This document shows positions 42,134 through 46,634 of a stretch of 46,634 bases of DNA, one piece after another (position 1 is the first letter of the stretch; each line of letters starts with the position of its first letter). Position numbers and translations under genes: made by a program. The stretch is taken from the NCBI GenBank assembly GCA_018819205.1, contig JAHJQE010000010.1, forward strand, positions 1 through 46,634, written 5' to 3'. The notes beneath the pieces are model-generated. The model was not told the DNA's origin, made no database searches, and saw nothing but the letters and a program-made list of their open reading frames with translations. The DNA is from Gammaproteobacteria bacterium. GTDB taxonomy: Bacteria; Pseudomonadota; Gammaproteobacteria; Burkholderiales; Gallionellaceae.

Positions 42134-43696
42134 ATGGCCATCACCCAAGCACTCATCAGCGTCTCGGATAAATCCGGTGTCCTCGAATTCGCCAAAGGTC
42201 TGCACGCCCTCGGCGTGAAGCTGCTGTCCACCGGTGGCACCGCCAAGCTGCTCGCCGACAACGGCGTGCCCTGCACCGAAGTCGCCGACTACACCGGCTT
42301 CCCCGAGATGCTCGATGGCCGTGTGAAGACCCTGCAACCGAAAGTGCACGCCGGCATCCTCGCGCGCCGCGACCTGCCCGAGCACGTCGCCACGCTGAAG
42401 AAGCACGACATCCCCACCATCGACCTGGTGGTGGTGAACCTGTACCCGTTCGCGGCCACCATCGCCAAGCCCGGCTGCACACTGGAAGACGCCATCGAGA
42501 ACATCGACATCGGCGGCCCGACCATGGTGCGCTCCGCTGCCAAGAACCACGCGCACGTCGCCATCGTCACCGACCCGGCCGATTACGCAGACGTATTGGC
42601 CGAGATGCAGACCAATAACTGCAGCGTGTCCGACGCCACCCGTTTCGACCTGGCCAAGAAAGCCTTCTCGCACACCGCCGCCTACGACAGCATGATCAGC
42701 AACTACCTCACCGCCATCAACAGCGACGGTAGCAAGCAAGACTTCCCTGCGCAGATCAACTTCAACTTCGCCAAGGTGCAAGACATGCGCTACGGCGAGA
42801 ACCCGCACCAGAGCGCCGCCTTCTATCGCGACCTGATCGCATTGCCCGGTGGCATCGCCGACTACACGCAAGTGCAGGGCAAGGAACTGTCCTACAACAA
42901 CATCGGCGACTCCGATGCGGCATGGGAACTGGTGAAGACCTTCCAGGAACCGGCCTGCGTCATCGTCAAGCACGCCAATCCCTGCGGCGTGGCCGTCGCC
43001 GACAGCGCGCTGAACGCCTACAAGCTGGCCTACGCGACAGACACCACCTCCGCGTTCGGCGGCATCATCGCCTTCAACCGCGAGCTGGACGAAGCCACCG
43101 CCGCGCAGATCACCGCCAACCAATTCGTCGAAGTCATCATCGCGCCGAGCGCCACCGAAGCCGCACTCAAAGTCACCGCTGCCAAGCAGAACGTGCGCGT
43201 GCTCACCGTGCCGCTGTCCAACGCGCACAACCAGTGGGACGTGAAGCGCGTCTCCGGCGGTCTGCTGGTGCAAAGCCCGGACGCACTCAACGTCGGCGCG
43301 GAGCACCTCAAGGTCGCCACCAAACTGCAACCCACCGCAGAACAGATGACCGACCTGCTGTTCGCATGGCGCGTCGCCAAATACGTGAAGTCCAACGCCA
43401 TCGTGTTCTGCAAAGGCGGCCAGACACTGGGCGTAGGCGCAGGCCAGATGAGTCGCGTCGACTCCACCCGCATCGCCAGCATCAAGGCGCAGAACGCCGG
43501 CCTGAGCCTGACCAATTCCGTGGTCGCCTCCGACGCCTTCTTCCCGTTCCGTGACGGCATCGACGTGCTGGCCCAGGCCGGTGCCAAAGCCGTCATCCAG
43601 CCGGGTGGCTCGATGCGCGACGAAGAAGTCATCGCTGCTGCCGACGAACTGGGCCTGGCGATGGTGTTCACCGGTCACCGTCACTTCCGTCATTAA
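42134..43696 (+). CDS. purH: Bifunctional AICAR transformylase/IMP cyclohydrolase
   Basis: The 520-aa product has an N-terminal IMP cyclohydrolase half ([53 protein letters not shown]). Its C-terminal AICARFT half has [13 protein letters not shown], the catalytic Lys-His segment [40 protein letters not shown] and the ending [11 protein letters not shown]. It does the last two steps of IMP synthesis. The ATG at 42134 is 19 nt after fis; upstream in-frame codons belong to fis sequence. Confidence 0.97.
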
Positions 43697-43703
43697 GAAT
43701 GTA

Positions 43704-43810
43704 ATGTAGGGTGGGTTTCCCCTGCGGGGACAAGAGTTCGCAGACCGTAACCCACCATCGAACAAAGAGACTATCGGTGGGTTACGCAATATCGCTAACC
43801 CACCCTACAT
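43704..43810. repeat. Small palindromic repeat unit (MITE-like) between purH and purD
   Basis: Outer arms ATGTAGGGTGGGTT (43704-43717) and AACCCACCCTACAT (43797-43810) are perfect 14-bp inverted repeats. Inside, CGTAACCCACCAT and ATCGGTGGGTTACG form a second, nested inverted repeat. The GTAGGGTGGGTT family is scattered in many proteobacterial genomes. It fills the purH-purD gap; the presumed purD ribosome site (GAGG) follows its right end at once. Confidence 0.8.
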
Positions 43811-43819
43811 GAGGTCGAT

Positions 43820-45091
43820 ATGAAAATATTAGTCATCGGTTCCGGCGGTCGCGAGCACGCACTGGCCTGGCGTCTGGCGCAAGGCAAGAAAGTGCAGAAG
43901 GTCTACGTCGCCCCCGGCAACGCGGGCACCGCGCTCGAAGAAGGCGTAGAGAACGTCAACCTCACCGCCATCCCCGAGCTGCTTGAGTTCGCCAAGACGA
44001 ACGACATCTACATGACCGTGGTCGGCCCCGAAGCGCCGCTGGCCGCAGGCGTGGTCGACGTGTTCCGCGCCGCAGGGCTGAAGATCTTCGGCCCCACCAA
44101 AGCCGCCGCGCAACTCGAATCCTCCAAGGATTTCGCCAAGCGCTTCATGACGCGCCACAACATCCCCACCGCCTTCTTCGAGACCTTCAGCGAGATCGCA
44201 CCCGCCAAGGCCTACGTTGAGAAACACGGCGCACCCATCGTCATCAAGGCCGACGGACTCGCCGCAGGCAAGGGCGTGGTCGTCGCCATGAGCAAGGAAG
44301 AAGCGTTCGACGCCATCGACATGATGCTGTCTGACAACAAGCTGGGCGATGCCGGCGCACGCGTCGTGGTCGAAGAATTCCTCGCTGGCGAAGAAGCCAG
44401 CTTCATCGTCATGGTCGACGGCAAGAACGTACTCGCCATGGCCAGCAGCCAGGACCACAAGCGCCTGCTCGATGGCGACCAGGGCCCCAACACCGGCGGC
44501 ATGGGCGCGTATTCGCCCGCACCCGTCGTCACGCCCACCATCCACGCCAAGACGTTGCGCGAAGTCATCATGCCCGTCGTGCGCGGCATGGAGAAAGAAG
44601 GCATCACCTATACCGGCTTCCTCTACGCCGGCCTGATGATCTCGCCGGACGGCGGCCTCAAAGTGCTGGAATTCAACTGCCGCTTCGGCGACCCCGAAAC
44701 CCAGCCCATCATGCTGCGCCTGAAGAGCGACTTCGCCGTGCTGATCGAACACGGCATCAACGGCACGCTCGACAAGATCGAAGCCGAATGGGACAAACGC
44801 ACCGCGCTCGGTGTCGTCATGGCCGCCGCCAACTACCCCGACACCCCGCGCAAGGGTGACGAGATCACCGGCCTGCCCAAGAAGCTCGAAGACGCCCACG
44901 TCTTCCACGCCGGCACCACCATGCAAGACGGCAAAGTCGTCACCAGCGGCGGCCGCGTGCTCTGCGTCGTCGCCCTCGGCGACATGGTCAAGCGCGCCCA
45001 ACAACGCGCCTACGAGATCGCCGACACCATCAAGTTCGATGGTTGTCAGATGCGCAGAGACATCGGCTACCGTGCGATAGGGCGGAAGTAG
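43820..45091 (+). CDS. purD: Phosphoribosylamine-glycine ligase
   Basis: This 423-aa ATP-grasp enzyme has KILVIGSGGREHALAWRLAQ at the N-terminus, VGPEAPLAAGVVD, FMTRHNIPTA, IVIKADGLAAGKGVVVA, the ATP-grasp EFLAGEEASFIVMVDG, and NTGGMGAYSPAPVVT with LEFNCRFGDPETQ. It makes glycinamide ribonucleotide, the second step of purine synthesis. It is probably co-transcribed with purH across the repeat unit. Confidence 0.97.
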   Translation: MKILVIGSGGREHALAWRLAQGKKVQKVYVAPGNAGTALEEGVENVNLTAIPELLEFAKTNDIYMTVVGPEAPLAAGVVDVFRAAGLKIFGPTKAAAQLESSKDFAKRFMTRHNIPTAFFETFSEIAPAKAYVEKHGAPIVIKADGLAAGKGVVVAMSKEEAFDAIDMMLSDNKLGDAGARVVVEEFLAGEEASFIVMVDGKNVLAMASSQDHKRLLDGDQGPNTGGMGAYSPAPVVTPTIHAKTLREVIMPVVRGMEKEGITYTGFLYAGLMISPDGGLKVLEFNCRFGDPETQPIMLRLKSDFAVLIEHGINGTLDKIEAEWDKRTALGVVMAAANYPDTPRKGDEITGLPKKLEDAHVFHAGTTMQDGKVVTSGGRVLCVVALGDMVKRAQQRAYEIADTIKFDGCQMRRDIGYRAIGRK

Positions 45092-45096
45092 CAAAA

Positions 45097-45164
45097 CCGT
45101 TCGTCCTGATAACCAGCGACTTGCCTGCTTGCGGGCTTAGTCGAATGGCTAGTAGTTCCATCAG
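45097..45164. repeat. 68-bp dispersed repeat, copy 2 (inverted relative to 2647-2714)
   Basis: It is the reverse complement of 2647-2714 with four mismatches, starting 5 bp after the purD stop. Confidence 0.8.
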
Positions 45165-45183
45165 CATGTCGAAGGATGGATAG

Positions 45184-45223
45184 AATAGAAACGGGGAAGT
45201 GGAGACACTTCCCCGTTTCTATT
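45184..45223. terminator. 18-bp perfect hairpin with GAGA tetraloop after purD
   Basis: AATAGAAACGGGGAAGTG pairs perfectly with its complement around a GAGA (GNRA-type) loop at 45202-45205. It lies about 90 bp after purD and could terminate either direction, although the T runs are short. Its right arm runs straight into the first direct repeat. Confidence 0.65.
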
Positions 45224-45281
45224 CAGCGGCCTATATATTCATCGCTATTGGCGATGCTAGGCAGGGTCGGTACTATTCGGT
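45222..45281. repeat. Direct repeat 1 flanking the ORF6N unit
   Basis: TTCAGCGGCCTATATATTC, then GCTATTGG.GAT, then GGCAGGGTCGGTACTATTCGG. The same order recurs at 46351-46411 with a handful of differences in the middle. Confidence 0.85.
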
Positions 45282-45328
45282 TCGAACTTGGCAATATCGA
45301 ACAAGGCTCATGAATCGGGGAGACGACG

Positions 45329-45874
45329 ATGACTGATAAGAAATCATTCGTGGTGGTTGCAAACATCGAATCCAAAATTCTGTTGATGCGTGGGCAGAAG
45401 GTCATGCTGGATGCGGATTTGGCGGAACTGTATGGTGTGGAAACAGGTGCGTTGAATCGTGCAGTCAAACGGAATGGTGAGAGATTCCCAGAAGACTTCA
45501 TGTTTCAGCTCACCTCTGCTGAGTATGAGGATTTGAGATGCCAAATTGGCACCTCAAACAGTTCAGCTGGGCGCGGTGGCCGCCGATATCTACCCTACGT
45601 CTTCACCGAACACGGTGCGCTGATGCTGGGCAATGTACTCAAGTCAGAGCAAGCGGTAGAAATGAGTCTGATGGTCGTCCGCGCCTTTGTGCGTATGCGC
45701 GAACTGGTCGCTGGCAACAAAGAACTGGCACAGAAGCTGAACCACCTTGAGCGCAAAGTCGGTGCGCATGACAAAGCAATTTCCGAAATCATCAAAGCCA
45801 TCCGCCAACTGATGGCACCGGAAGAGCCAAAGAAGAAACGCCCTATCGGCTTTGCGCCTTGGCAAGAAAAATAG
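45329..45874 (+). CDS. ORF6N-domain protein
   Basis: This 181-aa protein has an ORF6N domain (residues about 9-95; IESKILLMRGQKVMLDADLAELYGVETGALNRAVKRN, GERFPEDFMFQLT, and GRRYLPYVFTEHGALMLGNVL). A coiled helical segment (VVRAFVRMRELVAGNKELAQKL) and a Lys/Pro-rich tail (PEEPKKKRPIGFAPWQEK) follow. ORF6N domains come from phages and are thought to bind DNA; chromosomal copies are widespread and of unknown role. It lies inside a direct-repeat-bounded unit. Confidence 0.88.
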   Translation: MTDKKSFVVVANIESKILLMRGQKVMLDADLAELYGVETGALNRAVKRNGERFPEDFMFQLTSAEYEDLRCQIGTSNSSAGRGGRRYLPYVFTEHGALMLGNVLKSEQAVEMSLMVVRAFVRMRELVAGNKELAQKLNHLERKVGAHDKAISEIIKAIRQLMAPEEPKKKRPIGFAPWQEK

Positions 45875-46047
45875 ACAGAATGAGCTTGACGGATAACTTG
45901 ACTCATACTTGACCGAAGCCCATTGCCACCAAGATATATAGACCAAATGCCACATATCACCCACAAGGCATAACGGTTACTATCCAGCCCAGCACAAAGG
46001 TGGCGCGGCAACAGCCGCACATCGCAAAACATCCAGGGGAGCGCCAC

Positions 46048-46326
46048 ATGTCCAAGAAAAAATTCCACTGCCAGGCAGTCACCCATGCAGGCATCAAAAG
46101 CATCAGCATCACTGATGACACACACCACTTCTGTCTTACATTGGAAGACGCAGGCAACAGATTGAACGCCCTGAAAGAAGCCATCGCCATCGGCAAATAT
46201 CCCATCGCCATGGAGCTGGTGAACTCCTGCGCCAAGCTGATGACCGGCCCAACGGTAAAGTATTACGTCACACAGCACGATGCCGAGAAGTTCCTGCATT
46301 CACTGGATAAAGCGTTGCATCACTAA
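46048..46326 (+). CDS. Hypothetical protein, 92 aa
   Basis: I do not recognise this family. The ATG at 46048, behind GGGGAG, gives a 92-aa mixed alpha/beta protein. It starts SKKKFHCQAVTHAGIKSISITDDTHHF and continues with helix-forming LEDAGNRLNALKEAIAIGKYPIAMELVNSCAKLM and YYVTQHDAEKFLHSLDKALHH. It has no signal peptide or membrane helix. It lies 173 bp after the ORF6N gene, within the same direct-repeat unit; 45875-46047 holds no other feature I can see. Confidence 0.6.
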   Translation: MSKKKFHCQAVTHAGIKSISITDDTHHFCLTLEDAGNRLNALKEAIAIGKYPIAMELVNSCAKLMTGPTVKYYVTQHDAEKFLHSLDKALHH

Positions 46327-46350
46327 GCAGTTGCGCTGCCCCGTTTCACT

Positions 46351-46411
46351 TTCAGCGGCCTATATATTCTATGCTATTGGAGATAGATGGCAGGGTCGGT
46401 ACTATTCGGTA
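46351..46411. repeat. Direct repeat 2 flanking the ORF6N unit
   Basis: Second copy of 45222-45281 in the same orientation, preceded like the first by CCCCGTTTC. The unit from copy 1 to copy 2 is 1129 bp long. Confidence 0.85.
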
Positions 46412-46528
46412 CGGATAGCGCCATAAAATGAAACTGCATTTGCGACATCGAGATGACTTCTGTTGCTTTAAATCCTGAAATAAATAGTTAAGCAGGAGAG
46501 CGAAAAGAAAATCCAAGAGAGGATGAAT

Positions 46529-46634
46529 ATGAGCGATAAAAGGCTGGAGCAAATAAAGATTCAACTTCGCCAATTTGCCGAGGATAGAGATTGGGATCAA
46601 TTCCACTCACCAAAAAATCTTTCAATGGCATTGA
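46529..46634 (+). CDS. MazG-like nucleotide pyrophosphohydrolase, N-terminal part (cut by window end)
   Basis: Thirty-five codons are visible before the window ends, starting MSDKRLEQIKIQLRQFAEDR and continuing DWDQFHSPKNLSMAL. The pattern F-x-x-x-R-D/E-W-x-Q-F-H-S/T-P-K-N-L-x-x-A-L is the start of the small MazG-like/RS21-C6 pyrophosphatase family, which hydrolyses (d)NTPs. AGAGAGG lies 7 nt upstream; the ATG at 46523 in the same frame is an alternative start. The metal-binding E-x-x-E motifs would lie beyond the window. Confidence 0.8.
   Translation, partial: MSDKRLEQIKIQLRQFAEDRDWDQFHSPKNLSMAL

What the first reader, a model, noticed from the sequence alone, without database searches (positions are those of the whole stretch)
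45222..46411. ORF6N gene and a small unknown gene bounded by 60-bp direct repeats
Two similar 60-bp blocks (AGCGGCCTATATATTC through GTCGGTACTATTCGG) flank a 1.1-kb segment with a phage-type DNA-binding gene and a 92-aa orphan. The second block is followed at once by a MazG-like gene. The layout looks like a cassette array in which each gene is preceded by a conserved recombination or promoter site.
Basis: partly seen in the sequence, partly recalled or inferred. Interest (0 to 1): 0.55.

Follow-up and report, generated by a model that had tools for sequence, protein, structure and literature searches.

The report
Shared promoter repeats in defence hotspot
Two near-identical 63-base DNA blocks found next to phage-defence genes in an environmental (iron-oxidiser-type) bacterium are most likely copies of one promoter that stays in place while the defence genes behind it are swapped between species, rather than sites where gene cassettes jump in and out.

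Summary
In detail: two 63-nt direct repeats (54 of 63 identical; 200 shuffles gave at most 41) flank an ORF6N gene and a 92-aa gene, and a MazG-like gene follows. The locus lies between purD and yrdC, a defence hot spot of this Sideroxydans/Gallionella-type genus: there congeners carry type I or III restriction-modification genes, RhuM, or nothing. A profile of the block gave 9 strong hits in 7 of 81 genomes, all downstream of purD. There was no phage, plasmid or exact viral hit and no shared fold; the nearest tyrosine recombinase found is XerC/D-sized and 9-13 kb from purD. The block reads best as a promoter after a terminator: GGYCTATATATTC, 30 nt, then a -10-like hexamer. That spacing recurs outside the block (TANNNT in 7 of 44 other contexts; next best offset 2 of all 50). 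The 92-aa gene has a second type (palindrome TATAGGCCAAATGGCATATA, 21 nt, -10), with that spacing in 58 of 90 contexts. So 'promoter site before each gene' is supported; 'recombination cassette' is not. The '92-aa orphan' is a conserved family lying within 300 nt upstream of restriction, MazG or RhuM genes in 10 of 17 congeners. No expression data; regulator unknown.

The parts
43820..45091 (+). purD, left border of the hot spot
   Evidence: GARS domains
45185..45222 (+). terminator-like stem-loop after purD (17-bp perfect stem, GAGA loop)
   Evidence: folded; homologous stem-loops after purD in G006, G009, G017, G021, G032, G033; single matches elsewhere in G020, G028, G030
45222..45284 (+). 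block copy a: upstream motif GGCCTATATATTC 45228-45240, TTGGCG 45248-45253, TACTAT 45271-45276
45329..45874 (+). ORF6N-domain gene, 181 aa
   Evidence: PF10543 6e-35; PDC-S05 1e-57; phage anti-repressor phrog_4792 1e-27
45937..45983 (+). second promoter-type element: palindromic operator-like site with 3 mismatches (45937-45956), 21 nt, TACTAT (45978-45983)
   Evidence: read; class defined
46048..46326 (+). 92-aa conserved gene; no Pfam family above cut-off, no NCBIfam, PHROG or PADLOC match; PUR/Whirly-like predicted fold (weak)
46328..46350 (+). degenerate half of the purD terminator, repeated after the 92-aa gene
   Evidence: match 46336-46413; in G021 the copy after the 92-aa remnant keeps 28 of 31 letters of the terminator pattern
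46351..46413 (+). block copy b: motif 46357-46369, TTGGAG 46377-46382, TACTAT 46400-46405
46529..46634 (+). start of a MazG-like gene (35 codons; contig end). Contig C68 carries the rest, then a Schlafen-group-3-type helicase, NERD protein, terB-like gene, yrdC, hemF-like gene
   Evidence: NERD; families of the L086 homologues

Best explanation
The block is a promoter module joined to the purD terminator at the left edge of a defence-gene hot spot (purD-yrdC). Its parts are an upstream element GG(C/T)CTATATATTC at about -43 to -55, a weak -35 (TTGGCG/TTGGAG, 17-nt spacer) and a -10-like TACTAT. It drives whatever gene lies behind it: ORF6N from copy a, the MazG-helicase unit from copy b, type III methylase, HsdM or the 92-aa gene in relatives. 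The terminator-promoter module was duplicated around the 92-aa gene, and payload genes are exchanged behind the retained left flank, probably by ordinary homologous recombination in conserved flanking genes. Shown: the repeats, their restriction to this locus, the changing payloads, the recurring motif-to-hexamer spacing outside the block. Inferred: transcription, an activator protein, and the route of exchange.
For: Block only downstream of purD: 9 hits at E 1.6e-11 or better in 7 of 81 genomes, next hit E 5e-4 (all nine are among the 10 sequences the profile was built from). Different genes behind it: ORF6N and MazG (G000), 92-aa and an HsdS-like fragment (G033, read by eye), HsdR-N fragment (G017), type III Mod-Res (G009), HsdM (G021). 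Upstream motif elsewhere: in 50 distinct contexts of the loci held, TANNNT is at offset 30 in 10 (next best offset 2) and [TCG]ANNNT in 21 (next best 5); by my reading of its rows 6 of the 50 are block copies, leaving 7 of 44 and 18 of 44. In the 17 loci re-scored the profile matches end by model position 42, before the block's hexamer near 50, so these were not picked on the hexamer. The reversed motif gave 1 context. In block copies the two ends are conserved and the middle is not. TTGG[CA]G-17-TACTAT stands in 6 of 10 copies (read). The second promoter type in the same locus has TANNNT exactly 21 nt after its palindrome in 58 of 90 contexts, next best offset 3, and in at least one member of 31 of 42 downstream gene clusters.
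Against: The simple sigma-70 scan did not call the block on the + strand (8 of 12 consensus letters; threshold 9); it found 2 sites, no more than shuffles (mean 1.8), one of them on the minus strand inside block b. Copy a of G033 has spacing 26 instead of 30, G021's copy 29, and G006's copy lacks the hexamer (read). MazG starts 123 nt after the hexamer. The 50 contexts come from loci fetched largely for this motif or for the palindrome, several are homologous to each other, and some profile hits outside one search do reach model positions 46-67. For the palindrome class, the largest downstream cluster (12 sites) and the VgrG-like cluster (3 sites) have no TANNNT at 21. No transcript data; no regulator identified.
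Confidence: 0.66

Rival explanations
1. The block is the attachment or cassette site of a site-specific recombinase; genes are inserted and excised between copies.
For: Direct repeats bracket the segment; the gene to the right of a copy differs between genomes; G017 has one copy directly before a payload, as an excision product would look, though its contig ends soon after.
Against: No full copy outside the purD locus in 81 genomes, none in phages or plasmids, 0 exact matches in viral contigs. Tyrosine recombinase domains occur in all 8 genomes tested, but on the purD contig the nearest is a 299-323 aa XerC/D-sized gene 9-13 kb from purD in 6 of 8; G021's 39-kb purD contig and G033's 11.5-kb one have none, nor has contig C68 of the own genome. 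Contigs of G017 and G033 end close to the block. Serine recombinases and transposases were not searched. No RYYYAAC/GTTRRRY inside the blocks and no shared hairpin. Copies in one genome differ by 14% (G000) and 35% (G033).
Confidence: 0.12
2. The repeats are just the relic of a local duplication of the purD terminator region, with no function of their own.
For: The homology includes half of the purD terminator; many 92-aa genes elsewhere are followed by a different, own terminator-like sequence; some copies are badly eroded (G006, G032).
Against: Conserved ends with a variable middle of near-constant length across copies down to about 50% identity, and the same motif plus 30-nt spacing at other places, are not expected of neutral debris.
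Confidence: 0.17
3. The block encodes a structured RNA or leader (riboswitch- or attenuator-like).
For: Copies a and b each fold moderately well as RNA (z -1.5 and -1.4).
Against: Consensus structure has 5 pairs, covariation term 0, no compensatory change; 4 of 8 copies fold no better than shuffles as RNA; the 3 Rfam matches in 43500-46634 are all below gathering.
Confidence: 0.03

Closest known systems
Defence hot spots between core genes, e.g. the Listeria immigration control region (PMC10059834) and E. coli defence islands (PMC10121019); only search-listing abstract starts seen
   Same: Alternative restriction-modification and other defence modules replace one another at one fixed chromosomal place
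   Different: Here the left flank also keeps a repeated terminator-promoter module and often a small conserved gene; no dedicated tyrosine recombinase was found there
Activator-dependent sigma-70 promoters (CRP/FNR/LuxR type; recalled)
   Same: A palindrome centred near -43 at fixed distance from the -10 (second element); an upstream motif at about -50 (block)
   Different: The binding protein is unknown; LuxR-type autoinducer-binding proteins (PF03472) do not track with the palindrome
Integron gene cassettes / attC sites (recalled)
   Same: Short conserved site beside changing small genes
   Different: No attC boxes in the blocks, no conserved fold, no integrase found beside it, site confined to one locus
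ORF6N / phage anti-repressor domain proteins; PADLOC PDC-S05
   Same: The ORF6N gene matches both
   Different: Lies between chromosomal purD and yrdC; no prophage gene was recognised beside it among those examined

Membership tests
Defence hot spot | fixed core-gene borders with alternative defence contents in related genomes | tested here: met
   16 of 28 purD downstream regions run into yrdC within about 330 nt (read by eye); 12 carry other sequence, including types I and III RM, RhuM, MazG-helicase
Integron cassette array | attC core boxes RYYYAAC/GTTRRRY in each site | tested here: not met
   one match to each over 45200-46420 on the + strand (46247, 45451), neither inside a block
Integron cassette array | integron integrase at the array | tested here: inconclusive
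   no PF00589 hit on G000 C68 and only the XerC/D-sized gene on C24; the genome is in 103 contigs
Site-specific att-flanked element | the same site in other integrated or free elements | tested here: not met
   no hit in phages or plasmids, 0 exact in viral contigs, no full copy outside purD
sigma-70-type promoter | -35 and -10 hexamers with 16-18 nt spacing | tested here: inconclusive
   TTGGCG-17-TACTAT, 4+4 of 12 consensus letters, below the scan's threshold, kept in 6 of 10 copies (read)
Upstream-element promoter class of this genus | motif at fixed distance from a -10-like hexamer at places other than the block | tested here: met
   offset 30, 7 of 44 (TANNNT) and 18 of 44 ([TCG]ANNNT) non-block contexts, with the sampling caveat stated
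REP element | many dispersed intergenic copies able to form a hairpin | tested here: not met
   2 copies in the own genome, besides two 15-nt word matches; no shared hairpin
PUR/Whirly nucleic-acid-binding fold (92-aa protein) | fold match to solved PUR/Whirly structures | tested here: inconclusive
   PURA Z 7.3 over 86 residues, under the tool's 8 for confidence; Foldseek E 0.06; no convincing sequence match (best E 0.067, unrelated)

The most novel reading that the evidence does not exclude
One unidentified, Gallionellaceae-specific DNA-binding regulator recognises GGCC/TATA half-sites in two fixed layouts (palindrome 21 nt, or GGYCTATATATTC 30 nt, before the -10) and switches on a regulon of defence, secretion and cell-surface genes. 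Defence modules that land behind such retained promoters, often next to the 92-aa PUR-like gene, are thereby plugged into host control at once.
Probability: 0.33. Interest if true: 0.68.

Novelty: new member of a known kind. Interest (0 to 1): 0.45.

Why it matters
It suggests how a newly acquired defence gene becomes expressed: the hot spot keeps a ready terminator-promoter module and the gene is placed behind it. It also exposes a sharply defined, testable promoter code in a genus of environmental bacteria, with no regulator known to me that fits, and a small conserved gene that lies beside defence modules at several chromosomal sites.

Tried and rejected
Tried without result: Rfam on 43500-46634 (three matches, all below gathering) and on eight palindrome loci; block in plasmids, phages and viral contigs; 92-aa protein in plasmids, NCBIfam, PHROGs, PADLOC, PDB by sequence. 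LuxR-type regulator for the palindrome: PF03472 found in 11 of 41 genomes but not in G000, G006, G009, G017 or G021, which carry the palindrome. Structured RNA: no covariation. Cassette/att reading: see rivals. First idea that the block is a free-standing dispersed repeat: dropped when the profile found no full copy outside purD. Idea that the motif belongs to a FimB-like invertase, because weak hits lie near 225-aa tyrosine recombinase genes: the sequences show a hexamer-like word at 30 nt instead; invertibility itself was not tested. Paper searches: ORF6N with restriction-modification (0 papers), Gallionellaceae/defense system/hotspot (53), MazG/Schlafen/phage defense (72), ORF6N/defense (73, 3 papers), Sideroxydans/promoter motif/regulon (90), purD/defense island/integration hotspot (91), TATAGGCC as letters (92, 337 papers, 10 listed): no title or abstract start among the papers listed described this block, locus or motif; I opened no paper.

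Rows dropped: one search used only distinct 85-nt contexts with at least 30 nt before and 120 nt after the site start; only downstream ORFs of at least 100 aa (78 of 90), some of which are probably not genes; one search merged contexts with 6 or fewer mismatches and needed 90 nt downstream; one search listed 18 of the 24 loci; one search aligned 22 full-length relatives and the window protein, leaving out L088 and L089; one search covers 27 of the 29 genomes with a purD match plus the window (G019's is partial; the own genome is counted once).

Full report
What is there. One search finds the two copies at 45222-45284 and 46351-46413 (63 nt, 86%). Shuffling the region 200 times never gave more than 41 matches of 63, against 54 observed. 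The match extends left into a terminator-like stem-loop (78 nt). Between the copies lie an ORF6N gene and a 92-aa gene. The window ends at the end of contig C24, 35 codons into a MazG-like gene; contig C68 begins with a later part of such a gene, followed by a Schlafen-group-3-type helicase, a NERD protein, a terB-like gene, yrdC and a hemF-like gene (terB, yrdC and hemF are named from recall of their sequences; MazG and helicase families were scanned on the L086 homologues). So the locus is purD - ORF6N - 92 aa - MazG - helicase - NERD - terB - yrdC, with the contig join inferred from homology.

Where it is. Record titles place relatives in Sideroxydans, Gallionella and other Nitrosomonadales. 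In 16 of 28 purD downstream regions of the genus (27 fetched plus the window), yrdC follows within about 330 nt; in 12 other sequence intervenes (read by eye). Contents include type I RM (G006, G015, G018, G021), type III RM (G009), an HsdR-N fragment (G017), an HsdS-like fragment (G033, read by eye), RhuM (G021) and, in G032, none of the twelve proteins tested. This is a defence hot spot.

What the block is. Among 61 genomes (own included) only G009, G017 and G033 gave close matches besides the own genome; an exact pattern found only G000 and G033 among 34. A sequence profile from 10 copies, run on 81 genomes, gave 9 hits at E 1.6e-11 or better in 7 genomes, all downstream of purD and all used to build it, then a gap to E 5e-4 (run with stricter filters, which can lose weak matches). 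It is thus bound to this locus. Copies of different genomes and positions are mixed in similarity: G000b is 94% like G033b; G009b 86% like G017a. The ends are conserved and the middle is not. No common fold exists.

Why a promoter. Most weak profile hits share only the left part, GG(C/T)CTATATATTC. Reading on from them, a -10-like hexamer often stands 30 nt further on, as in the block: over 50 distinct contexts TANNNT is at offset 30 in 10 (next offset 2) and [TCG]ANNNT in 21 (next 5). Six of the 50 are block copies; of the other 44, 7 and 18 have it, and several of these are homologous to each other. The window also has a second layout upstream of the 92-aa gene: a copy of the palindrome TATAGGCCAAATGGCATATA with 3 mismatches, 21 nt, TACTAT. 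That palindrome has matches (up to 2 mismatches) in 30 of 61 genomes with no hit for the reversed control, and TANNNT lies exactly 21 nt after it in 58 of 90 contexts, next best offset 3, in at least one member of 31 of 42 downstream gene clusters; the largest cluster (12 sites) has none. Families downstream include HsdM, Mrr-type endonucleases, an AAA ATPase, ShlB/FhaC, HlyD, a GPD (VgrG-like) protein and a GGDEF protein, and RhuM. Against this, a consensus scan does not call the block, and some copies have other spacings or no hexamer.

Why not a recombination site. No full copy elsewhere, none in phages, plasmids or viral contigs, no attC boxes in the block. In six of eight genomes the nearest tyrosine recombinase on the purD contig is a XerC/D-sized gene 9-13 kb from purD; G021's 39-kb and G033's 11.5-kb purD contigs have none. 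The contigs of G017 and G033 end near the block, and serine recombinases and transposases were not searched.

The 92-aa gene. It is single-copy in 18 of 61 genomes, 17 of them in this genus including the own one and a fragment in G021, with 87% mean column identity over 23 sequences. In 12 of these 17 a restriction-modification, MazG or RhuM gene lies downstream on the same strand, in 10 within 300 nt (in G014 only RhuM was seen before the contig ends); G005, G019, G029, G032 and G033 show none of the twelve proteins tested, G005 and G029 with under 4 kb available and G033, with 0.3 kb, showing an HsdS-like fragment by eye. It occurs at purD, near a sigma-70-like gene in six loci (gene named from recall), and elsewhere. 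The Sulfuricella locus (L073) shows no such neighbour. The predicted fold (pLDDT 85, but only one of five models above 70) resembles PUR repeats and Whirly proteins, weakly.

Verdict. Observation confirmed; promoter reading supported, recombination reading not; the locus is a defence hot spot of a known kind with an interesting, still unassigned promoter code.

Noticed in passing
45937-45983 and L117-L146, L242-L298: Genus-wide palindrome TATAGGCCAAATGGCATATA (30 of 61 genomes, 0 reversed-control hits) with TANNNT exactly 21 nt downstream in 58 of 90 contexts: an apparent activator regulon with unknown regulator.
   Followed up: partly
L121, L125, L133, L135, L140, L142 (after the palindrome): A conserved, apparently non-coding stretch with a CAACTC arm of a possible hairpin and an anti-Shine-Dalgarno-like CTCTCCTCCT follows the -10; possibly a small RNA. 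No Rfam match in the eight loci scanned, which include L121, L125, L135, L140 and L142.
   Followed up: partly
46048-46326 and L066-L089: The 92-aa family sits immediately upstream of different defence modules at several chromosomal sites; may be a marker or partner of them.
   Followed up: partly
45105-45165: A roughly 57-nt element splits a 'gttcgtcctgag...gtcgaaggatga' repeat that is uninterrupted in G009; similar elements lie in L074, L079, L083, L095, L101, L109, L110, L111: REP- or MITE-like.
   Followed up: no
L299 (G000 C1), L300, L301, L302: The GGYCTATATATTC motif lies about 230 nt from the domain match of a 225-aa tyrosine recombinase gene, facing away from it, at four places in three genomes.
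   Followed up: partly
L086 5862-10234: 92 aa - RhuM - MazG-like - Schlafen-group-3 helicase unit near a sigma-70-like gene: the same MazG-helicase pair as in the window's locus but at another chromosomal site.
   Followed up: partly
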